From positions 162,200,576-162,264,575 of the forward strand of contig OZ038378.1 in assembly GCA_964036045.1 (NCBI GenBank): a DNA stretch of 64,000 bases, read 5' to 3'. The notes under the pieces are model-generated. The model was not told where the DNA came from. It saw only the letters and a list, made by a program, of their open reading frames with translations, and did no database searches. Of this stretch, positions 6,671 through 58,955 are shown in pieces. Numbering within the stretch: the first letter of the stretch is position 1; each line of letters begins with the position of its first letter. This DNA comes from Eutreptiella sp. 'Long Island Sound 2002'. Taxonomy: Eukaryota; Euglenozoa; Euglenophyceae; Eutreptiales; Eutreptiaceae. The position numbers and the translations under genes were made by a program.

Positions 6671-6884
6671 GGGCATGGGGGGAATGTTTGCCCGGCGCGC
6701 GCCCGGCGCGCGCCCGGCGCGCTACTTTTGTATTAACTATCCCGACTTCAGCCCCAGATTTACCCTCCCATGGAGAAGCCCCCCAAGTAGACCACATTGC
6801 ACTGCACACCTTCCCTACAAAGCACGTTGCAAAATAAAGCAATATCTGTGACTTCAACCACTCCAAATGTCATTTGTGTTGCAC

Positions 6885-7150
6885 TTAACAAACAACATTG
6901 GTCCCACAAGTGTGGGTGTCAATACATTCCTTACAATAGTGCTCCTTACACTCATCACAAACTGCGACGGTGGAGCGCCTTTGGCAACACAAAACACACA
7001 CTTCCGCCTCATCCTCTGCCTCATCTTGCGTGGCGGCCGAGTTGCTTTGGTCAGTCCAAACATGAGGCGGGACATGCTCCCATGGTCCGTAGGGGGGGTG
7101 ACGGACTTGCCTTCGGATGCAAAACTGAGTGAAATGCAACAAAATGCAAC
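6885..7150 (-). pseudogene. Cysteine-rich tail of Harbinger-like transposase
   Basis: In a different frame from the catalytic part, the sequence runs FCIRRQVRHPPYGPWEHVPP and then an acidic stretch followed by CVLCC...CDECKEHYCKECIDTHTCG. The paired CxxC and CxxxxxxC pattern looks like a small zinc-binding module. It ends at the stop at 6885 near the right end of the transposase gene. The same tail occurs at 18292-18560. Joining it to the catalytic core needs a frame change at about 7145-7170, which both copies need. Confidence 0.55.
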
Positions 7151-7860
7151 TCATTGGGGCCGCCACGCCAGATGTTCCTAACCAAACCCCAATGCCACAA
7201 CCGAGCAAACAGCTGCTCAATGCGTGCCCTGTACCACCCATGGACATCGTTGTAACCTTGTTGGCGGGCTGTCAAAGTGCCATTCTTTCTTCCAATGAAT
7301 GGCACAATGACATGAATCCGGCCTTTATAAGCGCCATCATGGCCCCCAACTTCAAAATCAAAGAAATCCCCTCGGGTACGAGAAGGTCCGTACCCATCCC
7401 AAATCAAAACATCTGCTGATGTCCCGGGGGCCAAGGGGCAAATCCATACAATGTTGCCCAACATATCAACGGCAACAGTGACCTTGTAAACATGCGACGC
7501 ATACTTAGGATTCCACAGGTCTGCACTCCATATCCCGCCAATGGAACTGATGGGCATGGAGTCTGTGAAATGCGTCATAAAGAATGGAAAATGGGGACAA
7601 TGGTTGAAAGGATTCAACCTGTCGGCCCATCGAATCTCTTGAACAACATGGTTAAGGTATTCGCGAGCACGGGCAACACTCTGCCGCCAGGCAACCTCCG
7701 AACCTTCTGCGTGAGACATGAAAGCACCGCTCTCTGCCGGTGGGGTTGTCCCGGTTTCCTCAATAGCACCGGACGGTTGGGGCCCAAAAGAGGGCGGAAA
7801 TGCTACATCACCCCTGCATTCTCGGGGGTCCCCAACAAAGGGAACAAAATCGGAAGTCAA
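7051..7860 (-). pseudogene. DDE transposase remnant (DDE_4/Harbinger type)
   Basis: The frame encodes a nuclease of the DDE_4 (PIF/Harbinger, IS5-like) type that would cut and rejoin transposon ends in the nucleus. The central part contains FTDSMPISSIGGIW, then ADLWNPKYASHVYKVTVAVD, then GTSADVLIWDGYG, the usual context of the second catalytic aspartate. HGWYRARIEQLFARLWHW follows, the usual context of the catalytic glutamate. The first 47 residues are translated dispersed repeat; the likely family-related part begins at the ATG at 7717-7719. About 220 residues remain against roughly 350-450 for full proteins, so the N-terminal domain is missing. Confidence 0.75.
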
Positions 7861-8090
7861 AACCTACGCCGGGGGTCACCATGATGCACCACGCAACAAA
7901 GCGTGGATTCAAAGATTGTCCCGGTTTCCTCAATAGCACCGGACGGTTGGGGCCCAAAAGAGGGCGGAAATGCTACATCACCCCTGCATTCTCGGGGGTC
8001 CCCAACAAAGGGAACAAAATCGGAAGTCAAAACCTACGCCGGGGGTCACCATGATGCAGCACGCAACAAAGCGTGGATTCAAAGATTGTC
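7751..8090. repeat. 170-bp tandem duplication inside transposon
   Basis: Bases 7751-7920 are repeated almost exactly at 7921-8090; I noticed one difference, CACCACGC against CAGCACGC. Each copy includes one unit of the ~60-bp dispersed repeat. The near identity implies a recent duplication within this element. The related element at 18108 carries a single copy. Confidence 0.92.
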
Positions 8091-8407: not shown

Positions 8408-9440
8408 TTCCACAGTAGATTGTCGTCTTCTGATTGTGGTGCAAAGGTGTTGCAAAGGAGACACATGGGCACATCACCAACATTGGAGCGAAGTGACGCG
8501 CAAAAATGTGTTTGCCGGGGTCAACGGCCACTTCCAACGCGTCTGGGTGCAAAAAGTCTCCTTGGTGAGGCCACTTCACAACTTGAATTGCAGCCTTCAC
8601 AATTCATAAATGCCTGTCTTCAGCGCCTTATTTGTAAGCACCCAATCTGTTGACAGCTGTTCGGGGTGTTCATGTCCTTGCCGCAAAGAAATAGGAAATT
8701 GGATAGACCCCAGCTATCCGGGCCCACCAACTTCTCCAAGTCAGGACGTAGCCTTATAATATGGGCGATTGAAATACCTAAACATCATGACGACATAAAT
8801 GCACTGCCATGATGCCACCGCATCAAAAGCCACGCCACCCTGATGCAAAGGCACCAAATACCAGGGCACCATATCGATACAGCACAATAATGCCGCAGCA
8901 CCAAATTGCCACAACACTATGACACGGCAATACAATTATTACACAACACCTTGATACCAAAACACCATGATGCAACAGCACCTTGATGCAACCACGGGAT
9001 GCGGCCACATAACACCATAATGGGACAACACCTTGATGTAACAGCAACATAATGTCACAGTACCATGTGGCCACGACAGCAGACCGCCACAACAACATGA
9101 TGCTACAACATTCCCATGCACTACACCATGAGGCCACTGCGCCATGATGGCACAGCACTATGAGGCTATGACGCCATAATGGCACAGCACCATTATGCCA
9201 AAGCAACATAATGCCACAGCATGCCTCAGCACCATGATGCTACAACAACAGTATAGCACAAACACAACAAAAGGGGGACAAAATGAATCAACAGAGGAGA
9301 AAATCACTTGGAGAGTTGCGGGTGTGTGTGTCGGTTCAGAGTGAAATACCTTCTCTCCGGGCTTGCTCGCCGGGATACCGCTGAAGTTGCAAAACATAAA
9401 GACTAAAGCGCATATGTGGAGTCCAGCCATATAGCATGCA
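8408..9440. repeat. Segmental duplication, copy 1
   Basis: Bases 8408-8654 match 10687-10933 and 8655-9440 match 11232-12017. Only a few substitutions are visible, so the duplication is recent. The second copy has 298 extra bases at the junction (10934-11231). The right edge falls at GCATGCA, and different exon-like sequences follow on the minus strand in each copy. Confidence 0.93.
8770..9250. repeat. Degenerate ACACCATGATGC minisatellite
   Basis: Units of about 16-18 bp such as GCACCTTGATGCAAC and AACACCATGATGC repeat imperfectly, and the same block is present at 11347-11827. Open frames on the minus strand rich in Cys, Val and Trp are repeat translations. Confidence 0.75.
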
Positions 9441-10686: not shown

Positions 10687-12017
10687 CTCCATAGTAGATT
10701 GTCGTCTTCTGATTGTGGTGCAAAGGTGTTGCAAAGGAGACACATGGGCACATCACCAACATTGGAGCGAAGTGACGCACAAAAATGTGTTTGCCGGGGT
10801 CAACGGCCACTTCCAATGCATCCGGGTGCAAAAAGTCTCCTTGGTGAGGCCACTTCACAACTTGAATTGCAGCCTTCACAATTCATAAATGCCTGTCTTC
10901 AGCGCCTTATTTATAAGCGCCCAATCTGTTGACTGGAACGGGTCTGTGCCTTGACACTTCTAATGTTCCGGGCGGCATCTCCAAAGCGGCCGTCGAACAA
11001 GAGCACACCTGATGGATATGCTCCTGCAATACGGGAAGATGCCGCTTCTTCGCACCGCGCCGCGATGCGGCGGCGTGATGGAGAGGGGTGAAGCTCTTGT
11101 ACTTGTTGGCGTCAGTCTCCGTGTCGGTGCGTTTCCATCTGACAGCGTGAGGGGTCGAGCAGCACCAAGGGACCCCCCAAAGCCGGATTAGGGTGAGCCG
11201 GGGCGAGAAATCCGGGTGACCAGAGGTTGACAGCTGTTCGGGGTGTTCATGTCCTTGCCGCAAAGAAATAGGAAATTGGATAGACCCCAGCTATCCGGGC
11301 CCACCAACTTCTCCAAGTCAGGACGTAGCCTTATAATATGGGCGATTGAAATACCTAAACATCATGACGACATAAATGCACTGCCATGATGCCACCGCAT
11401 CAAAAGCCACGCCACCCTGATGCAAAGGCACCAAATACCAGGGCACCATATCGATACAGCACAATAATGCCGCAGCACCAAATTGCCACAACACTATGAC
11501 ACGGCAATACAATTATTACACAACACCTTGATACCAAAACACCATGATGCAACAGCACCTTGATGCAACCACGGGATGCGGCCACATAACACCATAATGG
11601 GACAACACCTTGATGTAACAGCAACATAATGTCACAGTACCATGTGGCCACGACAGCAGACCGCCACAACAACATGATGCTACAACATTCCCATGCACTA
11701 CACCATGAGGCCACTGCGCCATGATGGCACAGCACTATGAGGCTATGACGCCATAATGGCACAGCACCATTATGCCAAAGCAACATAATGCCACAGCATG
11801 CCTCAGCACCATGATGCTACAACAACAGTATAGCACAAACACAACAAAAGGGGGACAAAATGAATCAACAGAGGAGAAAATCACTTGGAGAGTTGCGGGT
11901 GTGTGTGTCGGTTCAGAGTGAAATACCTTCTCTCCAGGCTTGCTCGCCGGGATACCGCTGAAGTTGCGAAACATAAAGGCTAAAGCGCATACGTGGAGTC
12001 CAGCCATATAGCATGCA
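10687..12017. repeat. Segmental duplication, copy 2
   Basis: Partner of 8408-9440, with offset 2279 bp on the left part and 2577 bp on the right part. The offset change is caused by the extra block at 10934-11231. It includes the minisatellite at 11347-11827. Confidence 0.93.
10934..11231. other. 298-bp block present only in duplication copy 2
   Basis: The hexamer GTTGAC stands just before the block (10928-10933) and again at its end (11226-11231), and it occurs once at the matching place in copy 1 (8649-8654). Either a sequence was inserted here with a 6-bp target duplication, or copy 1 lost it by recombination between short repeats. No inverted ends or known domain are visible. Confidence 0.8.
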
Positions 12018-13392: not shown

Positions 13393-13692
13393 TTTCACAT
13401 CGTTGCCACAGGTTGCAACGTTTGCAATGGGTGTTCGACCCACTCCTGATTTATTAGGCGTGGTCCAGTTTGGACAAGTGACGTCCACAAATGTGGTGAA
13501 TTCCGATTGTCTGCCCCAACATCCTGAGTGCTAGATGCACGCCGTAGGCAAACAGCATCAATGATGGCCAGTGTACCAGATAACATGCACATGAACCAAC
13601 ACGGCACATCGTGCTGGGCGACTGCACGTTTCTTTGACACAATGCAACACACCATGTGGAATATCTTTGTGCATGGGGTCTCCGCTGCTTAC

Positions 13693-14260
13693 ACCTCTGC
13701 CTCTGCCGCCTTTGCTGCCTTTGCCACCTTTGCCCCGTTTGCTGCCACCATACAAGATCCCCTCGCCGTGGCCCCAATCCTCCCGGACGTGATGTCCGTC
13801 CAAAGAACTCCCCGTCATTCATCGTCTGAATCGCGGCGCTCGCCATCTCTTGCGTCTCGAACTCCACGATGCCATGCCCCTTCTTCACATGGGCACGCAT
13901 GACTGTTCCGCAGGTGGCAAAATGGTCCTTCAGGCTCTGCCACGTCACGTCGAAACCGAGATTGCCAACGTAGACACAATTCGACGGCTGCACAAGGCCG
14001 ACTTTTCCTCTCTTGCGCGTCTTGGCTCCCTCGTCATGACATACAAAGATGTGGCGGCCATAGAGCACTGTACCATCCAGCTCCGCCACGGCGCGCTCCG
14101 CCTCCGCCATTGAGCAGTACGACACCAGCGCGCCACGACCGTCTGGCACCCGGAAGCTGCTCACGCTCCGCACTTCCCCAGCCTTTCGCATGTGCTCCAA
14201 TAACTCCGCCTCCGTTGTACAATACGACAAATGCCCGGCGTACACCACCGGCTCAGACAT
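13693..14260 (-). pseudogene. Two-RRM RNA-binding protein, frameshifted
   Basis: The product would bind RNA, probably in the nucleus or in mRNPs. Translation most likely starts at the ATG at 14258-14260 (MSEPVVYAGHLSY), since RRM1 begins at once. RRM1 has RNP2 VYAGHL and RNP1 GRGALVSY; RRM2 has RNP2 VYVGNL and RNP1 GHGIVEF. Near 13796 the frame breaks just after NDGEFFGR. One extra G relative to the expected frame separates it from HVREDWG, the normal last strand of RRM2. A GGSKRGKGGKGSKGGRGRG tail follows in the second frame, ending at a GTAAGC donor at about 13692. The break may be a pseudogene mutation, a sequencing error or programmed. Confidence 0.75.
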
Positions 14261-14264
14261 GGCA

Positions 14265-15050
14265 CTTGATAAAGGAAGTGCGCTCATACAAAATTTGATA
14301 CTGTGGGACGAAACACAGGGGTCGACAAAGGGTGCCACAGCCCCACATCGTGCCAAGAAATGCAGGATGCGGGGATCTGTGGGCGTGCTACATTGAAGGG
14401 GAGGGCCGTTGAACACGCCTCGTGTCTACAGCTACTTTGTTAGGGGAGTAAGAATGATATTTCCTAGCAAAGTCAGGTTGGCCTACCGTGGGTTGCTGGG
14501 CGGCTAGCACCCTGCCATCTTCGGTATCTTCACTATCGTAAAGGTCGCCCCCCCCTGGGCCAATGCATGGGCTGCAGAGAGACCCCTGGCATCGCTCCCA
14601 TAGACTGCAGGAGGGCGACATATGTGAGCATGGGAGTTTCAGTGCGGGGGACGGGTGCACCCAGGGGGAACAGGAAGAACTCCGGGTGTACGCGCATCAC
14701 CTGCTGCATGCTGGTAACCTACTTGCGCTTATAAGCCCAGTATATTTGCCGCACCCCTATGCCTCCTTCCTTGGGCGGGGTCCCCAGCATGTGATGGTTC
14801 ATGGTGGCCTCCATGCCCTTTGGTGCGCGTTTCGGCTGTAACTTTTAGTGAAGATTTGACAATTTCTAACGTTCTTACGTCAAATTTTAGCGATTTGACT
14901 GATTGAACCGCTTACCCTTCCGCGAAGCCACAGGATTCACACCCTGTGACTTTAATTTTCTATTTTTTTCGGCTCTTAAAGTTTTGTGACCTTCATGGGG
15001 AGTATTGCTCCGCCCTAGCCTTTGGTCAAGACGTTTATTGAATTGCTGTT
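14265..15050. other. No recognised gene
   Basis: Upstream flank of the RRM gene, where its promoter would lie; no clear TATA or other motif is recognisable. Open frames at 14388-14841 have no recognisable domain. Confidence 0.4.
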
Positions 15051-18107: not shown

Positions 18108-19152
18108 GGGGGACATTTGCCCGGCGCGCTACTTTTCTATTCACTATCCCGACTTCAGCCCCAGATTTACCCTCTCATGGAGAAGCCCCCCAAGTAGACC
18201 ACATTGCATTGCACACCTTCCCTACAAAGCACGTTGCATAATAAAGCAATATCTGTGAAATCAACCACTCCAACTGTCATTTGTAGTGTACTTAACAAAC
18301 AACATTGGTCCCACAAGTGTGGGTGTCAATACATTCATTACAATAGTGCTCCTTACACTCATCACAGACTGCGACGGTGGAGCGCCATTGGCAACACAAC
18401 ACACACACTTTTGCCTCATCCTCTGCCTCATCTTGCGTGGCGGCCGAGTTGCTTTGGTCAGTCCAAACATGAGGCGGGACATGGTTCCATGGTCCGTAGG
18501 GGGGGTGACGGACTTGCCTCTGGATGCAAAATTGTGTAAAATGCAACAAAATGCAACTCATTGGGGCCGCCACACCAGATGTTCCTAACCAAACCCCAAT
18601 GCCACAACCGAGCAAACAGCTGCTCAATGCGTGCCCTGTACCACCCATGCACATCATTGTAACATTGTTGGCGGGTTGTCAAAGTGCCATTCTTTCTTCC
18701 AATGAATGGCACAATGACATGAATCCGGCCTTTCTAAGCACCATCATGGCCCCCAATTTCAAAATCAAAGAAATCACCTCGGGTACGAGAAGGTCCTAGT
18801 ATCTCAAAGTATGGGTCCCTAACCCCAACTCGAGGGGCCACACAACAAAGCGTGTTTTCAAAGATTGTCCCGGTTTCCTCAATAGCACCGGAAGGTAGGG
18901 GCCCAAAAGAGGGCGGAAATGCTATGTCACCCCTGCATTCTCGGGGGTCCACAACAAAGGGGGCAAAATCAGAAGTCAAAACCTACGCTAGGGGTCACCA
19001 TGATGCTCCTAGTATCTCAAAGTGTGGGTCTCTAGTACAGCCAGACGCCCAAATAGCTGCACTGCGCTAAGTGAGCCCCCTTAGTGCACCCCCTAAAAGG
19101 CCACTCGAGGGGCACAGGTCCAAAAAGATGCTCGGCGCGCTAACGTTCCCCC
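18108..19152 (-). mobile_element. Harbinger-like transposon, copy 2, deleted
   Basis: It starts GGGGGACATTTGCCCGGCGC and ends CTCGGCGCGCTAACGTTCCC plus C residues, as copy 1. Bases 18135-18796 follow copy 1 closely. Homology then jumps from GTACGAGAAGGTCC to TAGTATCTCAAAG, so the region encoding the first half of the catalytic core is gone. No clean target duplication is visible: AAG on the left and CGA on the right. The right end resembles that of the 762-1461 element. Confidence 0.8.
18292..18790 (-). pseudogene. Transposase remnant, copy 2
   Basis: Encodes SRTRGDFFDFEIGGHDGA, then a stop (TAG at about 18710) where copy 1 has tyrosine, then GRIHVI...RIEQLFARLWHWGLVR with the catalytic glutamate context. 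The cysteine-rich tail follows in another frame, as in copy 1. The first two catalytic positions are lost with the internal deletion. It cannot encode an active nuclease. Confidence 0.75.
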
Positions 19153-34889: not shown

Positions 34890-35814
34890 CTTGTGAAGAC
34901 AGCGGAATGGTGGACGGGGCATGCGGAGGGCAGAAGCTTGGGAACCCAAAGCACAGTGGGAACCCGTCTGCAGGACACACACGTCAACATTGGCTACCAC
35001 ACCATGTTCTAATGATGCATGACCACGAACCCCGGGTGGGGAAGCCGGGATAGATATAAAGGGGCCCAAGCGCCCTCCAGGGGGCAGGGGGGCAGGGCAG
35101 GGATGTATTGGAAGAGAGGAGGCATTCGCCTTTTCAAGTCCTGGACGCTAGTGCGATTGAGGGGATCAGGGGGTTAGCGGGTGAGAGCTCATCTATATAC
35201 AGTGGAAGAGATTGGAGGGAGGGGCGGGTTTGGCTGGACCCCCCTTCCTCCTTCCAGGTGTCACACCCTCTGGTGGGGGCGGTCCCCATGATGAGCCAGA
35301 GGCACCCATTTCCTGTGAGCAGGCTCAGCCTCGCAGATGAGACGCCGTGCGTCGCCGCCCAAGTGACAGGCGCGATGGCCCAGAGGGCCCCGCGAGTGCG
35401 TATCAGCCTACCCACACAATCCACACCAGGCTGATCCAAACCTGTTGCGCCGGTCCTTGTGGGACCCAGGGCGTAGAGACAAAAAAAAAATAAAAGGAAA
35501 CCCAATGCGACGCGTAACCCCACACAAGTGACACCGTCCTGGAGGCGGCCCCATACCCCGCTGAAGGGATCACCATGAAGAGACATGGTGCCTAACTAGT
35601 CATCATGTGGTGCTGGGCGGTCCAGTGCTGAGCCGGCCTGCGTGAGCTGAGGAGGGTGGTCCTCCCTAGAAACGCACACGACAAGTCCCACAACAAGGAC
35701 ACCGCGCAGTGCACGCGGCGCACGACGCGACGCACAGGTGCACGCGGAGCGACACGAGAGACAACAAGACGCACGACGCAGTGCACACCGCACAGGCCAC
35801 ACAGCAGGCTCCAA

Positions 35815-38600
35815 TAGTCCCTTGATTGGTAACGGGACTGGGGCACACCAGCAGTGACTGCAGCATGCGAACGTGCTGCCAATAGGCTGTGGTGCACAAG
35901 CTACAGCACAAGGAATGCAGGCCCCAAGAGCCCCTTGATTGGTGACGGGACTGGGGCATTACTGCAGCCAGTGGCCGCAGCATAACAGCGCTGCAAAGAT
36001 GCTGCACAAGCTACAGCACAAGGGCAGCAGGCTCCAATAGTCCCTTGATTGGTAACGGGACTGGGCACTCCTGCTGTGACTGCAGCATGCGAACGTGCTG
36101 CCAGTGGTCTGTGGTGCACAGGCTGCAGCACAAGGACTGCAGGCCCCAAGAGCCCCTTGATTGGTGACGGGACTGGGGCATTACTGCAGCCAGTGGCTGC
36201 AGCATAACAGTGCTGCAGAGATGCTGCAGCAGTCAGGCTGCGAAAGAAGGGCTGCAGGCTCCAATAGTCCCTTGATTGGTAACGGGACTGGGCACACCTG
36301 CAGTGACTGCAGCACGCGAACATGCTGCCAATGGGCTGTGGTGCACAGGCTGCAGCACAAGGACTGCAGGCCCCAATAGCCCCTTGATTGGTGACGGGAC
36401 TGGGGCATTACTGCGGCCAGTGGCCGCAGCATAACAGCGCTGCAGAGATGCTGCAGCAGTCAGACTCCGCGGTGGAGGCACAAGACCTCCGTTGTGGAGG
36501 CACAAGACCTCCGCGGTGGAGGCACAACACCTCCGCGGTGGAGACACAAGACCTCCGTTGTGGAGGCACAAGACCTCAGCCGTGGAGGCAGAAGACCTCC
36601 GCACGACACAAGGGCTGCAGGCTCCAATAGTCCCTTGATTGGTAACGGGACTGGGGCACTCCTGCAGTGACTGCAGCATGCGAACGTGCTGCCAATGGGC
36701 TGTGGTGCACAGGCTGCAGCACAAGGACTGCAGGCCCCAAGAGCCCCTTGATTGGTGACGGGACTGGGGCATTACTGCAGCCAGTGGCTGCAGCATAACA
36801 GCGCTGCAGAGATGCTACAGCAGTCAGGCTGCGACACAAGGGCAGCAGGCTCCAATAGTCCCTTGATTGGTAACGGGACTGGGCACTCCTGCAGTGACTG
36901 CAGCATGCGAACATGCCGCCAATGGGCTGTGGTGCACAGGCTGCAGCACAAGGACTGCGGGCCCCAAGAGCCCCTTGATTGGTGACGGGACTGGGGCATT
37001 ACTGCAGCCAGTGGCTGCAGCATAACAGCGCTGCAGAGATGCTGCAGCAGTCAGGCTGCGACGGGCACTCCTGCAGTGACTGCAGCACGCGAACGTGCTG
37101 CCAATGGCCTGTGGTGCAAAGGCTGCAGCACAAGGACTGCAGGCCCCAATAGCCCCTTGATTGGTGGCAGGACTGGGGCATTACTGCGGCCAGTGGCCGC
37201 AGCACAACAGCGCTGCAGAGATGCTGCAGCAGTCAGACTCCGCGGTGGAGGCACAAGACCTCCGTTGTGGAGGCACAAGACCTCCGCGGTGGAGGCACAA
37301 CACCTCCGCGGTGGAGACACAAGACCTCCGCGGTGGAGGCACAAGACCTCCGCCGTGGAGGCACAAGACCTCTGCACGACACAAGGGCTGCAGGCCCCAA
37401 TAGCCCCTTCATTGGTAACGGGACTGGGGTACTCCTGCAATGACTGCAGCATGCGAACGTGCTGCCAATGGGCTGTGGTGCACAGGCTGCAACACAAGGA
37501 CTGCAGGCCCCAATAGCCTCCTGATTGGTGACAGGACTGGGGCATTACTGCAGCCAGTGGCTGCAGCATAACAGCGCTGCAGAGATGCTGCAGCAGTCAG
37601 GCTGCGTGCGACACAAGGGCTGCAGGCTCCAATAGTCCCTTGATTGGTAACGGGACTGGGGCACACCTGCAGTGACTGCAGCATGCAAACTTGCTGCCAA
37701 TGGGCTGTGGTGCACAAGCTACAGCACAGGGACTGCAGGCCCCAAGAGCCCCTTGATTGGTGACGGGACTGGGGCATTACTGCAGCCAGTGGCTGCAGCA
37801 TAACAGCGCTGCAGAGATGCTGCAGCAGTCAAGCTGCGACACAAGGGCTGCAGGCTCCAATAGTCCCTTGATTGGTAACGGGACTGGGCACACCTGCAGT
37901 GACTGCAGCATGCGAACGTGCTGCCAATGTGGTGCAAAGGCTGCAGCACAAGGACTGCAGGCCCCAATGGCCTCTTGATTGGTGACGGGACTGGGGCAAT
38001 ACTGCGGCCAGTGGCCGCAGCATAACAGCGCTGCAGAGATGCTGCAGCAGTCAGACTCCGCGGTGGAGGCACAAGACCTCCGTTGTGGAGGCACAAGACC
38101 TCCGCGGTGGAGGCACAACACCTCCGCGGTGGAGACACAAGACCTCCGTTGTGGAGGCACAAGACCTCAGCCGTGGAGGCACAAGACCTCCGCACGACAC
38201 AAGGGCTGCAGGCTCCAATAGTCCCTTGATTGGTAACGGGACTGGGGCACTCCTGCAGTGACTGCAGCATGCGAACGTGCTGCCAATGGGCTGTGGTGCA
38301 CAGGCTGCAACACAAGGACTGCAGGCCCCAATAGCCCCTTGATTGGTGACGGGACTGGGGCATTACTGCAGCCAGTGGCTGCAGCATAACAGTGCTGCAG
38401 AGATGCTGCAGCAGTCAGGCTGCGACACAAGGGCTGCAGGCTCCAATAGTCCCTTGATTGGAAACGGAACTGGGGCACTCCTGCAGTGACTGCAGCATGC
38501 GAACATGCTGCCAATGGGCTGTGGTGCACAGGCTGGAGGCACAACACCTCCGCCGTGGAGGCACAAGACCTCCGCGCTGGGGGCATAAGAAGTCCGCAGC
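35815..38600. repeat. 2.8-kb higher-order satellite
   Basis: The basic unit is about 223-232 bp. Each carries CCCTTGATTGGTAACGGGAC, a GCAGTGACTGCAGCATGCGA segment and a second, diverged half with TTGATTGGTGACGGGACTGG. CTTGATTGGTAAC occurs at about 35821, 36044, 36271, 36644, 36862, 37639, 37867 and 38225, with related forms at 37407 and 38453. Three longer units hold an extra array of a ~20-bp box, CGCGGTGGAGGCACAAGACC, at about 36470-36600, 37245-37375 and 38055-38195; a shorter one is at 38530-38600. Open frames on both strands are repeat artefacts. Confidence 0.93.
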
Positions 38601-38792
38601 GGAGGCACAAGCAAAGACGCCGAGCCCGCGCCAAGCACTGCGCATGAAGAGCACGAAGCGCACGCGCCAGCGCACGCGACGAACCCCGAGCACGCTCTGG
38701 GCCACCTGAGGGTGAGGTGACTGCCCTAGCGTCCGCCGGAGGCCGCCACCGGCAAAGCGAGAGGCAACCCACGGGCAGCCGATACCGCACGG

Positions 38793-51740: not shown

Positions 51741-51939
51741 CGGCAATGTACCTGCGGCTCACTGGTGGCTAAGTGGAAATGTGAAGTTGGGGCTCAGTTG
51801 GGGCTCAGTTGTGCATTGCGATGTCTTTGTGCTTGTTTGTTGTGCGTTTTGCATGCTAGGTAATGTGCATTTAATGTTTTTAGAAGTTTTAGATACTCAC
51901 TTGGTCAAGGTTCAAGGTGGGGGGTACTTTTTTTGGCGA

Positions 51940-52080
51940 CGGCTCAGTTGACTGAGCGCCCGACTGAGCCGTCAGTGAGCCGTCACTGAGCCGGCTCACT
52001 GAGCGCTCATTGAGCGCTCACTGAGCGCGCCAAATGGCTCAGTGAGCGCTCAGTGAGCGCTCACTGAGAGCTAATTGGGG
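51940..52080. repeat. CTCACTGAGCGC satellite, left outer block
   Basis: Units around GAGCGCTCACTGAGCG and GAGCCGTCACTGAGCC. Each unit contains GAGCGCTC, itself a palindrome. Mirror block at 57830-57987. Confidence 0.88.
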
Positions 52081-53124
52081 GCTCACTCAGGGCTCACTCA
52101 GGAGTTTCTCCCCCTTTCCGCCCTCTCTTCCCACCCTTGCTGGCCCACACTTCACCCTTTTCACACCAACATTGGTCCGCAGTTCTCACCACGTCTTTTC
52201 TCCAAGAACTTGAGCGTGCATGCACACATACATACTTGCATACATGTACCCGTGGCGACAAACACACAAACATCCAAACACACACACTTCGTCAGGGACA
52301 CAAATATCCAAACACATACACACACATACACCATACACACGTCCACACACACATGCACATGCACAAATTGACAACCACATTCATTCTTGTGTGCAATTAT
52401 CTTGCGTGTACATAAACACATGGCCACATTGAACCATGTGAAGTGAGGGGCTAGGGAGAGATGGTTACGGGGTTGGGGTTTGGGGATATGAACCTAACCA
52501 TTTGCGAGGGTGTTCCTTGTTGCCTCATGACAATGGCACCCCCCCCCCCCCAGACACACACACACACACGGGCGCGCGCGCCATGAAGCACAAATAGGGC
52601 ACAGAGGATATTGCTCGCTTTTGTGAGGTTGATCATACAACCATCGTGACCTACACCATGACACACTCATTCCCCTCCGTCCTTATCCCCCCCCGTCCCC
52701 TTTTGCCATGCCTGATCCCCCCGCTTACCCCATGCCAACCCCTTCTCTTATCTTGCCTGTCGCGTCCCCTTGCCCAGCCCTTGCCATGCCTTCCCTATTT
52801 ATTGCCATGGCATCGAGTGCATGATGGTGGCGGCAATGACGATGACCTTTGCAGGTATGTTGTGCTAGTGTGTGTGTTCGCGGGTGTGTGCTTGTGCCCA
52901 TGCGTATGTGCGCAAGTGTGGATGGTTTGTTCCCTCTTGGTTTCTCTCATTTAGTGTGTTTGTATGTATGTTTGTGTGTGAGTCGGGGGGGGGGGCGGGG
53001 GCTTGCTTGGATCGATGCATGGGTGAAGGTGTCCTTGTGCGTCACTGTGAGTGTGTGACTGCATTCTTTGGTTTCCGGTTGTCTAGGTTTGTTTGCGTAC
53101 GTGGATTCGTGAATGTGTGTACGC

Positions 53125-53186
53125 GCAGGTGTGTGTGTGTGTGTGTGTGTGTGCCAATGTGTGTGTGTGTGTGTGTGTGTGTGTTG
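53125..53186. repeat. GT microsatellites in left arm
   Basis: Two runs of GT (about 53130-53152 and 53159-53183). The right arm is much shorter here: a CA run near 56765-56783 only. Confidence 0.9.
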
Positions 53187-53399
53187 CAGCTTTTGCGGCT
53201 GTTGTTTTGGATCCTGTTGTTGGTTTTGGTGTTGTGTGGCATAGGCTTTGATTGTGTGCGCATAACATTGTGTTTGTGGCTGCAGATGCAGGTATGCTTG
53301 TGTTTGTGGTTGTGGCTGTGGTTCTGGGCTTGCGTGAGGTTGTTGCCATGGCTGTTGTGGTAGCTGTCGTTCTTGGTGTGGTTATGGTAGTGGCTGTGG

Positions 53400-53490
53400 T
53401 TGCGGCTTTGCTTGTGGACGTGGGTGTGGGTGTGGGTGTGGGTGTGGGTGTGGGTGTAGGTGTGGGTGTGGGTGTGGGTGTGGGTGTGTG
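53400..53490. repeat. GTGTGG hexamer repeat, left arm
   Basis: About 14 copies of GGGTGT. The right arm has only three to four copies (56520-56545, as ACACCC), so the arms differ by unit number here. Confidence 0.9.
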
Positions 53491-53694
53491 TCTGCAAGCT
53501 GTGTTGTGTGTGGATTTGGTTGTGGTTGTGTCAGTGTGTGTGGCCCTGGCTGTGGCGAAGGCTGCAGTTGCAGCTTTCACTGTGGCTGCAGCTGTTCTTT
53601 GGGTGTAGCTGTGGGGGGGGGGGGTGGTAAAGGACTACAAAGAGGGGGGCTGAAATCACCATCCACCCCCTCCCAAAAAAGACCGCACCAAGTT

Positions 53695-54060
53695 TACAGT
53701 GACAGTGTACAGTGACAGTGTACAATGACAGTGTATAGTGAGAGCATACAGTGCGTGTAGAGTGACAGTGTAGAGTGCTAGTATAGAGACTTGGGCGTTG
53801 TGGCGGACGTACTGTGTGTGGGGATACATTCTATGAGACCTTGGGGAGTACAGTGTACAGAGTACAGTGTACAGTGTACAGTGTACAGTGACAATGTACA
53901 GTGATAGTGTATAGTGACAGTGTGCAGTGGCAGTGACAGCGTACAGTGCCAGAATACAGTGTACCATGTACAGTGACAGTAGATAGTGACACCATTGACC
54001 GTGTACATGGACAGTGTACAGTGACAGTGTACAGTGACAGTGTACAGTGACAGTGAACCA
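53695..54060. repeat. TGTACAGTGACAG satellite, left
   Basis: Units of 6-12 bp, GTGTACAGTGACA, diverged in the middle. Mirror block at about 55925-56312 as CACTGTACACTGT. Confidence 0.9.
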
Positions 54061-54242
54061 TGAGTGAGCCCTCACTGAGCGCTCACTGAGCCATTTGGCG
54101 CGCTCAGTGAGCGCTCACTGAGCCATTTGGCGCGCTCACTGAGCGCTCACTGAGCGCTCACTGAGCGCGCGAAACGGCGCAGTGAGCGCTCAGTGAGCGC
54201 GCCAAATGGCTCAGTGAGCGCTCAGTGAGGGCTCACTCATGG
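54060..54242. repeat. CTCACTGAGCGC satellite, left inner block
   Basis: Blocks of GAGCGCTCACTGAGCC and CATTTGGCGCGCTCAGTG, arranged as a local palindrome between GGTTCACTG-type flanks. A similar block is at 55795-55925. Confidence 0.9.
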
Positions 54243-55780
54243 TTCACTGTCACTGTACACTGTCATTGCACACTGTGTATTGCACACTGCACACCGCACA
54301 CTGTGTATTGCACACTGCACACTGCATACTGTGTATTGCACACTGCACACTGCACACTGTGTGTTACAAATTGCACACTGCACACTGCAATGCACACTGC
54401 ACACTGTAATGCACACTGCACACCCTGTAATGCACACTGCGCACTGTGTATTGCACACTGCACACTGCACAGTGCACCGTGTGCAGTGTGCAATACCCAG
54501 TGTGCAGTGGCACAGTGCACACTGCGCAGTGCACCGTGTGCAGTGTGCAATGCCCAGTGTGCATCGTGCAGTGTGCAATACACGGTGTGCAGTGTGCATT
54601 ACACAGCGTGTAGTGTGCAATGTACACTGCGCACTGCACACCGTGTACTGCACACTGCACACTGTAATGCACACTGCACGCTGTGTATTGCACACTGCAC
54701 ACTGTAATGCACACTGCACACTGTGTCATGCACACTGCACACTGTGCATTACAAACTGCACACAGCACGCTGTCATGCACACTGCACACTGCAGTATTGC
54801 ACACTGCACACTGCACACTGTGTGTTACAAATTGCACACTGCAATGCACACTGCACACGGTGTATTGCACACTGCACACTGTATACTGTGTATTGCACAG
54901 TGCACACTGCATACTGTGTATTGCACTGTGTGTTACAAATTGCACAACGCACACTGTAATGCACACTGCACACTGTGTAATACACTCTGCACACTGTGTA
55001 TTGCACACTGCACACTGCACGCTGTGTATTGCACACTGCACACTGCACACTGCACACTGTGTGTAGTGTGCACTACACAGGGTGTAGTATGCCGTGTGTG
55101 ATGTAATCCACACGGCACACCGTGTAATGCACACTCCACACTGTGTCATGCACACTACACCCTGCACCGTGTGTATTGCACATTGGGTATTGCACAGTGC
55201 ACCGTGTGCAGTGTGCAATACCCAGTGTGCATTACGCAGGGTGCGGTGTGTAGTGTGCAATACACAGTGTGCAGTGTGCATTACAGTGTGCAGTGTGCAA
55301 TTTGTATTGCACAGTGTGCAGTGTGCAGTGTGCAATACACAGTGTGCGGTGTGCATTACAGTGTGCAGTGTGCAATACACAATGTGCAGTGTGCAATACA
55401 CAGTGTGCAGTGTGCATTACAGTGTGCAGTGTGCAATACACAATGTGCAGTGTGCAATACAGAGTGTGCAGTGCGCAGGGTGCAGTACACAGTGTACACT
55501 GCGCACTACACACTGTGTAATGCACACTGCACACTGTGTCATGCACACTGCACACCGTACAGTGCAAGCATTTGGGCGCTCAGTGTGCAGTGTGCAATAC
55601 ACAGTGCGCAGTGTGCATTACAGGGTGTGCAGTGTGCATTACAGTGTGCAGTGTGCAATTTGTAACACACAGTGTGCAGTGTGCAGTGTGCAATACACGG
55701 TATGCAGTGTGCAGTGTGCAATACACAGTGTGCAGTGTGCAGTGTGCAATACACAGTGTGCAATGACAGTGTACAGTGAC
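54243..55780. repeat. TGCACACTG central satellite
   Basis: Plus-strand ACACTGCACACTGTGTATTG units from the left give way to CAGTGTGCAATACACAGTG units on the right, the changeover being near 54.5 kb and again near 55.05 kb. The block is thus itself a mosaic of inverted segments. Cysteine/histidine-rich frames are artefacts. Confidence 0.92.
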
Positions 55781-55794
55781 AGTGAACCATGAGT

Positions 55795-55925
55795 GAGCCC
55801 TCACTGAGCGCTCACTGAGCCATTTGGCGCGCTCACTGAGCGCTCACTGCGCCGTTTCGCGCGCTCACTGAGCGCTCAGTGAGCGCGCCAAATGGCTCAG
55901 TGAGCGCTCAGTGAGGGCTCACTCA
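55795..55925. repeat. CTCACTGAGCGC satellite, right inner block
   Basis: Partner of 54060-54242, slightly shorter. Confidence 0.9.
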
Positions 55926-57829
55926 TGGTTCACTGTCACTGTACACTGTCACTGTACACTGTCACTGTACACTGTCCATGTACACTGTCAATGGTGTCAC
56001 TATCTACTGTCACTGTACATGGTACACTGTATTCTGGCACTGTACGCTGTCACTGCACACTGCACACTGCCACTGCACACTGTCACTATACACTGTCACT
56101 GTACATTGTCACTGTACACTGTACACTGTACACTGTACACTGTACTCTGTACACTGTACTCCCCAAGGTCTCATAGAATGTATCCCCACACACAGTACGT
56201 CCGCCACAACGCCCAAGTCTCTATACTAGCACTCTACACTGTCACTCTACACGCACTGTATGCTCTCACTATACACTGTCATTGTACACTGTCACTGTAC
56301 ACTGTCACTGTAAACTTGGTGCGGTCTTTTTTGGGAGGGGGTGGATGGTGATTTCAGCCCCCCTCTTTGTAGTCCTTTACCACCCCCCCCCCCCACAGCT
56401 ACACCCAAAGAACAGCTGCAGCCACAGTGAAAGCTGCAACTGCAGCCTTCGCCACAGCCAGGGCCACACACACTGACACAACCACAACCAAATCCACACA
56501 CAACACAGCTTGCAGACACACACCCACACCCACACCCACACCCACAACCAAAGCCGCAACCACAGCCACTACCATAACCACACCAAGAACGACAGCTACC
56601 ACAACAGCCATGGCAACAACCGTACGCAAGCCCGGAACCACAGCCACAACCACAAACACAAGCATACCTGCGTCTGCAGCCACAAACACAATGTTATGCG
56701 CACACAATCAAAGCCTATGCCACACAACACCAAAACCAACAACAGGATCCAAAACAACAGCTGCAACACACACACACACACACCTGCGCGTACACACATT
56801 CACGAATCCACATACACGCACGAACCTAGGCAACCAGAAACCAAAGAACGCAGTCACACACTCACAACCACTCACACACAAAGACACCTTCACTCACGCA
56901 TCGATCCATGCAACCCCCCCCCCCCCCCCACACACACACAAGCAGACATACAAACACACTAAATGAGAGAAACCAAGAACGAACAAACCATCTATAGCTG
57001 CGCACATGCGCATGGGCACAACTACACACGCACGCAAGCACGCACACACGCACCCACACACATAATAGCACAACATACCTGCAAAGGTCATCGTCCTTGC
57101 CGCCACCATCATGCATGTGATGCCATGGCCAAAAAATAGGAAAGGTAGGACAAAGGGGACGGGACAGGCAAGAGAACAGAAGGGCTACGCACGAGGGAAG
57201 CGGGGGAACGCAGCATAACGAAAGGGGAGGGGAGGGGACAAGGAGGGAGGGGTATCAATGTGTTATGGTGTAGGTCACGATGGTTGTATGATCAACCTCA
57301 CAAAAGCGAGCAATATCCTCTGTGCCCTATTTGTGCTTCATGGCGCGCGCGCCCGTGTGTGTGTGTGTGTCTGGGGGGGGGGGGGTGCCATTGTCATGAG
57401 GCAACAAGGAACACCCTCGCAAATGGTTAGGTTCATATCCCCAAACCCCAACCCCGTAACCATCTCTCCCTAGCCCTTCACTTCACATGGTTCAATGTGG
57501 CCATGTGTTTATGTACACGCAAGATAATTGCACACAAGAATGAATGTGGTTGTCAATTTGTGCATGTGCATGTGTGTGTGGACGTGTGTATGGTGTATGT
57601 GTGTGTATGTGTTTGGATATTTGTGTCCCTGACGAAGTGTGTGTGTTTGGATGTTTGTGTGTTTGTCGCCACGGGTACATGTATGCAAGTATGTATGTGT
57701 GCATGCACGCTCAAGTTCTTGGAGAAAAGACGTGGTGAGAACTGCGGACCAATGTTGGTGTGAAAAGGGTGAAGTGTGGGCCAGCAAGGGTGGGAAGAGA
57801 GGGCGGAAAGGGGGAGAAACTCCTGAGTG

Positions 57830-57987
57830 AGCCCTGAGTGAGCCCCCAATTAGCTCTCAGTGAGCGCTCACTGAGCGCTCACTGAGCCATTTGGCGCGCT
57901 CAGTGAGCGCTCAGTGAGCGCTCAGTGAGCCGGCTCAGTGACGGCTCAGTGACGGCTCAGTCGGGTGCTCAGTCAACTGAGCCGTCG
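57830..57987. repeat. CTCACTGAGCGC satellite, right outer block
   Basis: Mirror image of 51940-52080, ending at the palindrome boundary GACGGCTCAG...CTGAGCCGTCG. Confidence 0.88.
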
Positions 57988-58135
57988 AAAAAAAGAAACC
58001 CCCCCGGTCAAATCCTCTTGGCCTAGGGATTGGTGTCCCTTTGGGGACATTCCAAAACCCCAACCCAACCCCGAAAGCCACAACTTTTCACATGAAACCC
58101 CTTGAAAAACACCACTTAGCCCCAAATGAGCCGTT

Positions 58136-58885
58136 TTAGCCCCAACTGAGCCCCAACTTCACATTTCCAAGTGAGCCACAGGTACAAATATCTAAAGGAG
58201 CACAAACCCAAACTCTCTGAATACCTAGGTTGGCAACATCAATACGATCAAACAATGCTCTATGTGAGCGAAAGATGTCATCTGCAACCTTTGGTACCCT
58301 GGCCTCAATTTCGGCCAGCTCCGGCAAACCCGGGTATGCAGGTAGGGCAGTAGTGTGCAAAACAGCAGCAGCTATATAGTTTAGGGTTAAGTCGGGTGAA
58401 TGGGGATTGGCTCCCGACCTGTAACGCCTCAGGTTATCAAACCATATACAAACTTGCCTACGGTGCATGGTGTTCCACAAGTTGTGTGCTGCTAGTCCAG
58501 CACGATGTTGAATGGACTCCTGCTTAGTGTTACACTGACCAAAGACTCCTACCTTGCGGCGTTGGCGGCGGGACATAATACCCCAATTGTAACCAGACCC
58601 ACAGTTAGAGTATGGGAGGGCCATAAGACGCAGAAGGCAGTACAGGGCATGGAATTGTGACAAAAATGTCAAGTACCATCGTGGGGGCTTCTTCTCGGTG
58701 GTGGCAGCCTTCAACTGTCTCATAGAGTGCCGGCTCCTGCGATTCTTCCGCAACATGAGGCAGAATTGAAAAAGCTTTTGCAGAGTCCCACCACGTAATG
58801 CATTTCGCAACAGCCCTTTGGCTTTAGTAGCAAAAGCACCAGTAACTGCAGCATGTACGACATTTACAGCAATAGCAGAAGACAT
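58136..58885 (-). CDS. Unrecognised protein, 249 codons
   Basis: An intact minus-strand frame starts at MSSAIAVNVVHAAVTGAFAT. A basic segment follows (MLRKNRRSRHSMRQLKAATT), then WYLTFLSQFHALYCLLRL, MSRRQRRKVGVFGQCNTKQE and NTMHRRQVCIWFDNLRRYR. Arg-rich and Trp/Phe-containing segments suggest a nucleic-acid-related protein, perhaps transposon-borne, but no family is recognised. The last codons (GNVKLGLSWG) run into sequence shared with 51748-51807, so the original C-terminus may have been replaced. One copy of the GGCC...GGCC palindrome (58299-58319) lies in the coding region. The five-copy array lies just upstream of the ATG. Confidence 0.55.
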   Translation of the reverse strand: MSSAIAVNVVHAAVTGAFATKAKGLLRNALRGGTLQKLFQFCLMLRKNRRSRHSMRQLKAATTEKKPPRWYLTFLSQFHALYCLLRLMALPYSNCGSGYNWGIMSRRQRRKVGVFGQCNTKQESIQHRAGLAAHNLWNTMHRRQVCIWFDNLRRYRSGANPHSPDLTLNYIAAAVLHTTALPAYPGLPELAEIEARVPKVADDIFRSHRALFDRIDVANLGIQRVWVCAPLDICTCGSLGNVKLGLSWG

Positions 58886-58955
58886 TAATGCTCAGACAAG
58901 AAAACAGTTATGTAGGAGTGTAAGGTGTAATACTCATGAACAATGACGATTGCAA

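What the first reader, a model, noticed from the sequence alone, without database searches (positions are those of the whole stretch)
51937..57987. A 6-kb palindrome built from nested satellites
The sequence reads the same on both strands over about 3 kb per arm, with no unique spacer. The ends share CGACGGCTCAGTTGACTGAG. Such perfect long palindromes are unstable and rare outside foldback elements, amplicons and sex-chromosome arms. Satellites inside are themselves palindromic, so structure repeats at 8 bp, about 150 bp and 6 kb scales. It could be a foldback-type transposon, a replication or chromosome feature, or a hairpin-derived assembly error.
Basis: seen in the sequence. Interest (0 to 1): 0.88.

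Follow-up and report, generated by a model that had tools for sequence, protein, structure and literature searches.

The report
Foldback DNA transposon, probably of Euglena
The 6-kb palindrome is one of many recently spread copies of a gene-less jumping DNA element that can fold back on itself, probably moved by an unusual gene-carrying relative in the same protist genome.

Summary
It is a dispersed non-autonomous foldback DNA transposon, not a hairpin artefact. The terminal pattern occurs 891 times in the 2.28-Gb genome (reversed control 0). On contig C1, neighbouring ends within 20 kb face each other in 34 cases (1 divergent, 0 same-direction). All 27 elements read in full have 2-bp flanking duplications; one has a paralogous empty site. 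Left arms match left arms (99.4%), right match right (98.6%), left-right only 88%, so one master palindrome spread. An 8.19-kb relative has the same ends and three genes: a 2OG-dioxygenase-like ORF1, coiled-coil-like ORF2, and a candidate transposase with RAG1/CMCT-like C2C-H4H-E spacing, stop-free at 65 of 75 scored places. It is the likely mobiliser. A second family (TGTACCCTTCGTGAAC ends) repeats the plan: in both, four islands of a family-specific 11-bp palindromic satellite sit at the ends and between the genes. Spliced-leader matches point to Euglena. New variant of a known kind; the transposase call rests on motifs because structure predictions failed.

The parts
51747..58186 (.). complete non-autonomous foldback element, 6440 bp, inverted along its whole length
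51747..51763 (+). left terminal inverted repeat TGTACCTGCGGCTCACT
58170..58186 (-). right terminal inverted repeat (reads TGTACCTGTGGCTCACT on the - strand)
51745..51746 (.). 2-bp target site duplication AA, left copy
58187..58188 (.). 2-bp target site duplication AA, right copy
51951..52098 (.). palindromic island 1 (11-bp unit, CTCAGTGAGCGCTCACTGAG type), left end
54065..54237 (.). palindromic island 2, inner left
55794..55923 (.). palindromic island 3, inner right
57822..57961 (.). palindromic island 4, right end
53691..54055 (.). ACAGTGTACAGTG satellite (13-bp period), left arm, in two blocks
55931..56316 (.). the same satellite in inverted orientation, right arm, in two blocks
54251..55778 (.). 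central TGCACACTG-type satellite (7/21-bp period); contains the midpoint of the palindrome near 54966

Best explanation
Window 51747-58186 is one insertion of a recently amplified, gene-less foldback DNA transposon in a genome that is probably Euglena's. It is most likely cut and pasted in trans by the ORF3 transposase of an 8.19-kb three-gene relative that has nearly the same ends. Shown: shared ends, 2-bp target duplications, an empty site for one copy, and descent of the compared copies from one palindromic master. Inferred: that ORF3 is a DDE transposase of the CACTA/Mirage/Chapaev/Transib/Plavaka (CMCT) clade; that the 11-bp palindromic islands are binding arrays for it or for ORF2; that the palindrome arose once in a master element and was then copied, with later internal deletions.
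For: TSDs: 21 of 21 copies have a 2-bp duplication (3-bp match in 0 of 21; 2000 permutations of right flanks: mean 3.1, max 10), plus 3 of 3 by inspection and 3 of 3. Paralogous empty site: L015 carries L019's flanks uninterrupted, 156 of 158 bases, overlapping by exactly the 2 bp TG. Terminal pattern 891 vs control 0; 34 convergent vs 1 divergent vs 0 same-direction neighbours within 20 kb on C1. Partner: L029 shares 355 bp (95.8%) and 373 bp (94.1%) of the two ends, carries three long ORFs and four islands. ORF3 has no stop at 65 of 75 scored places (one of these cut by a contig end), 32 with one identical score; the 5 ORF3 places listed on C1 all lie 394 bp from an exact terminal repeat (listings compared). 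Motifs conserved between two ORF3 lineages at 39% identity: C(2)C, H(4)H, H to E 20/20, D2 to E 251/254; RAG1 residues quoted in PMC4914335 give 20 and 254. Single master: L-L 99.4%, R-R 98.6%, L-R within copies 88.4% and between copies 88.4%, 17 copies.
Against: No Pfam model up to E 10 and no NCBIfam model up to E 1 matches P0001 or the second lineage's ORF3 (the filters drop most matches above E 0.1), and the first-to-second D distance is 77/76, not RAG1's 108. Some ORF3 relatives lack motif residues: P0006 reads VHGT at the first D and RHCC at C(2)C, P0008 GHCC. AlphaFold models of ORF3 and ORF1 are unusable (pLDDT 39.7 and 26.5). No transposition or expression data. The comparison copies come from the 40 best matches to the window's left arm, so identities, L-L above all, are biased upward. 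Islands are not all indispensable: 6 of 21 copies have only two or three, and the 15.7-kb element B has one island only, at its left end. 27 of 97 exact terminal hits on C1 have no exact partner. Window and L029 interiors share only the ends and islands. The window copy's own empty site was not obtained.
Confidence: 0.85

Rival explanations
1. Same foldback transposon, but mobilised by a different transposase (that of the second, TGTACCCTTCGTGAAC-ended family, or one not yet seen).
For: Two related transposase lineages coexist, both mostly without stops in the matched stretch (65 of 75 and 94 of 103 scored places), and their termini share TGTACC. A second-family element has inserted inside a foldback copy.
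Against: Of the two, only the L029 type shares the foldback's extended ends and the same island sequence; the second family has its own.
Confidence: 0.1
2. Hairpin-derived or collapsed assembly error.
For: Long palindromes are a known assembly hazard (recalled); no reads could be mapped here.
Against: Left and right arms differ by about 12% in the outer 1.1 kb and do so alike within and between 17 copies; each of 21 copies has its own 2-bp duplication.
Confidence: 0.01
3. Chromosomal or replication feature rather than a transposon.
For: Short-period satellites and self-complementarity.
Against: Dispersed on many contigs, precise insertion with 2-bp duplication and an empty site, deletion derivatives down to 1,026 bp that keep both ends.
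Confidence: 0.02
4. A Mutator- or P-type foldback such as Tetris, Tm1 or Galileo.
For: Same architecture: long inverted repeats with internal tandem repeats and no genes (PMC4079207 passages).
Against: Tetris makes 8-10 bp duplications; here it is 2 bp in 27 of 27.
Confidence: 0.02

Closest known systems
Foldback elements: Tetris (PMC4079207, passages), Galileo (PMC4168063, listing and abstract start), Tm1 (PMC3169594, listing and abstract start)
   Same: Long inverted arms containing tandem satellites, non-coding interior, dispersed copies with target duplications. Internal tandem repeats as additional transposase binding sites are reported for Galileo (as cited in a passage of PMC4079207).
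   Different: 2-bp instead of 8-10 bp duplications (Tetris); an abundant gene-carrying relative with the same ends is present here, whereas none was found for Tetris; a palindromic 11-bp satellite in up to four islands.
PlavakaA transposons of fungi (PMC12730594, passages)
   Same: 2-bp TSDs and 5'-TGT..ACA-3' termini; CMCT-type C(2)C and H(3-4)H motifs between second D and E.
   Different: ORF3 matches no Pfam model up to E 10; the host has a Euglena-type spliced leader; ORF1 is not recognised as TET/JBP; no island layout is mentioned in the passages read.
Transposons carrying a TET/JBP dioxygenase (PMC12730594, passages)
   Same: A transposase gene travels with a putative 2OG-Fe(II) dioxygenase gene.
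   Different: ORF1 gives only a sub-threshold 2OG-FeII_Oxy_3 match (P0012, E 0.096) and no TET/JBP match.
CACTA/EnSpm elements
   Same: CMCT-type motifs; subterminal arrays of short repeats in both orientations (recalled, from no call).
   Different: Termini are not CACTA and the TSD is 2, not 3 bp; islands also lie between genes.

Membership tests
Foldback transposon (structural class) | long inverted repeats with internal tandem repeats | tested here: met
Foldback transposon (structural class) | dispersed copies flanked by target site duplications | tested here: met
   27 of 27 with 2 bp; one paralogous empty site
Foldback transposon (structural class) | no transposase gene inside | tested here: met
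   tblastn of the three L029 proteins against the window: no match up to E 0.01
Mutator-type foldback (Tetris, Tm1) | 8-11 bp target duplication (8-10 bp for Tetris; 11 recalled) | tested here: not met
   3-bp match in 0 of 21, 4-bp in 0 of 21
PlavakaA | 2-bp TSD and TGT..ACA termini | tested here: met
   definition from passages of PMC12730594
PlavakaA | transposase recognisable as Plavaka | tested here: not met
   no Pfam match of ORF3 up to E 10; the genome search with the Plavaka model did not complete; no tree with Plavaka proteins was made
CMCT clade (EnSpm-Mirage-Chapaev-Transib-Plavaka) | C(2)C and H(3-4)H between second D and E | tested here: met
   met in both lineages' full-length ORF3. 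Of 61 homologues, many of them fragments, 26 match the C2C search pattern (25 truly, P0006 reads RHCC), 18 the H4H, and 14 of 14 with both H4H and E have 20-residue spacing; P0008 reads GHCC
CMCT clade (EnSpm-Mirage-Chapaev-Transib-Plavaka) | RNase H-like fold | tested here: inconclusive
   model pLDDT 39.7; no credible PDB sequence match
Transib/RAG | 5-bp TSD (recalled) | tested here: not met
   2 bp
TET/JBP-carrying transposon | TET/JBP dioxygenase domain | tested here: not met
   no such Pfam match; an H-x-D...H signature only

The most novel reading that the evidence does not exclude
Euglena holds a separate lineage of RAG-like (CMCT) DNA transposons with 2-bp TSDs. It carries its own 2OG dioxygenase and an accessory protein, and marks its ends and gene borders with four arrays of an 11-bp (about one helical turn) palindromic code that differs between families along with the transposase. 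The foldback element would be a parasite that kept the code and dropped the genes.
Probability: 0.5. Interest if true: 0.78.

Novelty: new variant of a known kind. Interest (0 to 1): 0.62.

Why it matters
For Tetris, a well-described foldback element, no mobiliser was found (PMC4079207). Here parasite and probable mobiliser are young and abundant in one protist genome, so how foldback palindromes arise and spread becomes testable. If ORF3 is confirmed as a transposase of RAG1-like spacing, it widens the known range of the group from which RAG1 came. A transposon-borne dioxygenase in a relative of organisms with the modified base J (relationship recalled) would be a candidate tool against host DNA modification. 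The family may also name part of the roughly one third of the E. gracilis genome listed as unknown repeats (PMC11252322, section read).

Tried and rejected
The 13.2-kb element C (L032+L033) was first read as a foldback with its own genes (note). One search showed it to be a foldback into whose left arm a second-family element had inserted (TSD CA), so that claim was dropped.

Structure predictions of ORF3 and ORF1 gave no usable models, so no fold search was run. PDB sequence searches gave nothing credible. A pattern-limited scan of viral contigs found 223 pattern matches, none of which encodes a relative of ORF3 by tblastn. The first arm comparison mixed in four copies with a shared right-arm deletion (L012, L014, L015, L016); one search dropped these 4 of 21 and used 17.

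Not obtained because searches did not complete: the genome-wide count of ORF1, the empty site of the window's own copy, the Plavaka model in the genome, and ribosomal RNA. The Euglena assignment rests on a spliced-leader segment recalled from memory and is not a species name.
Full report
What is there. The window lies at C1:162200576-162264575 of a 2.28-Gb genome in 2205 contigs. The palindrome is real but is one copy of a dispersed repeat. Conservation between copies starts at 51747 and stops at 58186, giving a 6,440-bp element that aligns to its own reverse complement over its full length at 83.4%. The termini are TGTACCTGYGGCTCACT. The two ends differ just inside these (63% identity in the first 150 alignment columns), then become nearly identical (about 99% in columns 300-750).

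Why it is a transposon. Besides the window I fetched 20 of the other 39 scored places. In all 21 the flanks repeat 2 bp; a 3-bp match occurs in 0 of 21, and permuting right flanks among copies gives on average 3.1 two-base matches, at most 10. Six more elements chosen also show 2 bp (three by inspection, three), so 27 of 27. The duplicated dinucleotide varies (CA 6, TA 5, AA 3, AC 3, TT 3, TC 2, TG 2, CC, GA, CG 1 each). Locus L015 contains the two flanks of L019's insertion as uninterrupted sequence, 156 of 158 bases around the junction and 847 identities in 859 aligned over the longer stretch, overlapping by the 2-bp TG: a paralogous empty site. The terminal pattern occurs 891 times, 0 in the reversed control. 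On C1, the only contig listed completely, 97 hits give 34 facing neighbours within 20 kb, 1 divergent and 0 same-direction. With the limit at 35 kb there are 35 facing pairs; their lengths cluster near 6.45 and 8.2 kb and range from 1.0 to 29.8 kb; 27 of the 97 hits have no exact partner.

One master palindrome. In 17 copies (the 4 with a shared right-arm deletion left out), outer left arms are on average 99.4% alike, right arms 98.6%, but left versus right is 88.4% whether within one copy or between copies. The palindrome was therefore inherited, not made anew at each locus. This speaks against a hairpin assembly error and shows no sign of arm-to-arm conversion since amplification. The copies come from the 40 best matches to the window's left arm, so the figures, the first above all, are biased upward. 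Internal deletions are common: lengths run from 2,475 to 6,556 bp in the 21 and down to 1,026 bp in L036.

Probable mobiliser. L029 (8,191 bp between ends) has the same termini, shares 355 bp (95.8%) and 373 bp (94.1%) with the foldback's two ends and has a 2-bp CG duplication, and carries three long ORFs on one strand. ORF3's homologue P0001 finds 75 scored places among 7,807 candidates; 65 have no stop (one of them cut by a contig end) and 32 share one identical score. The five ORF3 places listed on C1 all end 394 bp before an exact terminal repeat, four of them in complete pairs (listings compared). P0001 and the second lineage's ORF3 match no Pfam model up to E 10 and no NCBIfam model up to E 1. 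Yet the two lineages, 39% identical, conserve D, D, C(2)C, H(4)H and E with spacings D1-D2 77/76, D2-C 23/23, C-H 200/203, H-E 20/20, D2-E 251/254. The RAG1 residues quoted in PMC4914335 (passages) give 108, 19, 207, 20 and 254, so all but the first are close. P0006 and P0008, which are fragmentary relatives, lack some of these residues. PMC12730594 (passages) states that CMCT transposases, including Plavaka, share C(2)C and H(3-4)H between second D and E, and that PlavakaA elements have 2-bp TSDs and TGT..ACA termini. The match in termini, TSD and motifs is close, but ORF3 is not recognised as Plavaka, so I call it CMCT-like, not a Plavaka member. ORF1 has an H-x-D...H signature and a sub-threshold 2OG-FeII_Oxy_3 match at the same place in P0012 (E 0.096); one aligned relative, P0016, reads H-T-N. 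ORF2 is coiled-coil-like with no credible family.

Four islands. Island motifs (CTCASTGAG, GAGCGCTC) occur 46 times in the window's element in four clusters and 0 times elsewhere in the window; L029 has 59, also in four clusters: at both ends, between ORF1 and ORF2, and between ORF2 and ORF3. A second family, found through P0010 (94 of 103 scored places without stop in the matched stretch) and read in L034 and L035, has ends TGTACCCTTCGTGAAC, TG duplications, the same gene order and four islands of a different sequence, AAATTCGTACG. The repeat step of 11 bp is the strongest or second strongest in all 12 islands of the three elements examined, window, L029 and L034. In the 21 foldback copies both outer islands are present near fixed distances from the ends (249 bp left; 265-276 bp right), while four islands remain in 15, three in 5 and two in 1. 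Against a strict need for them, the 15.7-kb element B has one island only, at its left end, though it may have lost the other after insertion. Inference: the outer islands help movement, as binding arrays; the inner ones help or are merely inherited.

Organism. A spliced-leader segment of Euglena gracilis, recalled from memory, occurs 3,569 times with 0 in the reversed control, so I place the genome in or near Euglena. PMC11252322 (abstract start, passages and one section seen) describes a 2.37-Gb E. gracilis assembly; the chromosomes listed in the passage have 26-72 Mb, while C1 here has 201 Mb, so it is not evidently that assembly. About one third of that genome is listed as unknown repeats. 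PMC12455990 (passages) mentions abundant transposases in E. gracilis without describing this family there.

Novelty. Foldback elements are known; this one differs in its 2-bp duplication, its CMCT-like gene-carrying relative and the island plan. My library searches with foldback, Euglena and transposon terms showed no paper on such a family among the titles listed; most listings were capped (for example 12 of 147, 12 of 2,037, 12 of 24), so this is no proof of absence from print. Two steps remain unproven: that ORF3 moves the foldback, and that islands bind a transposon protein.

Noticed in passing
L032+L033 (C1:120731030-120744240): A foldback copy with a 6.5-kb second-family transposon inserted in its left arm (TSD CA): a transposon inside a transposon of a related family.
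   Followed up: yes
L030+L031 (C1:39994150-40009950): 15.7-kb element with foldback-type ends and TSD TC, only one island (left end), no match to the three L029 proteins, and long Ser/Pro/Thr/Leu-rich repeat frames inside.
   Followed up: partly
L013: The left flank of this foldback copy holds a further fragment of about 680 bp of the same family's right end.
   Followed up: no
window 35804-38611: Alternating 112/227-bp tandem repeats and 22-bp CTCCGCGGTGGAGGCACAAGAC arrays, with segments repeated at 94-95%.
   Followed up: no
window 7051-7863 (-): DDE_Tnp_4 transposase fragment, E 6.2e-7.
   Followed up: no
window 8649-9440 and 11226-12017: Direct repeat of 792 bp at 99.5% identity, 2.6 kb apart.
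   Followed up: no
window 6712-7389 and 18119-18796: 678-bp direct repeat at 95%; the first copy overlaps the DDE_Tnp_4 frame.
   Followed up: no
window 13454-14425 (-): Open frame with two matches to RRM_1 (E 1.8e-25).
   Followed up: no
window 58136-58891 (-): 251-codon open frame (stop to stop) that runs across the right end of the element into the flank; no Pfam match. It may be host or other repeat sequence split by the insertion.
   Followed up: partly
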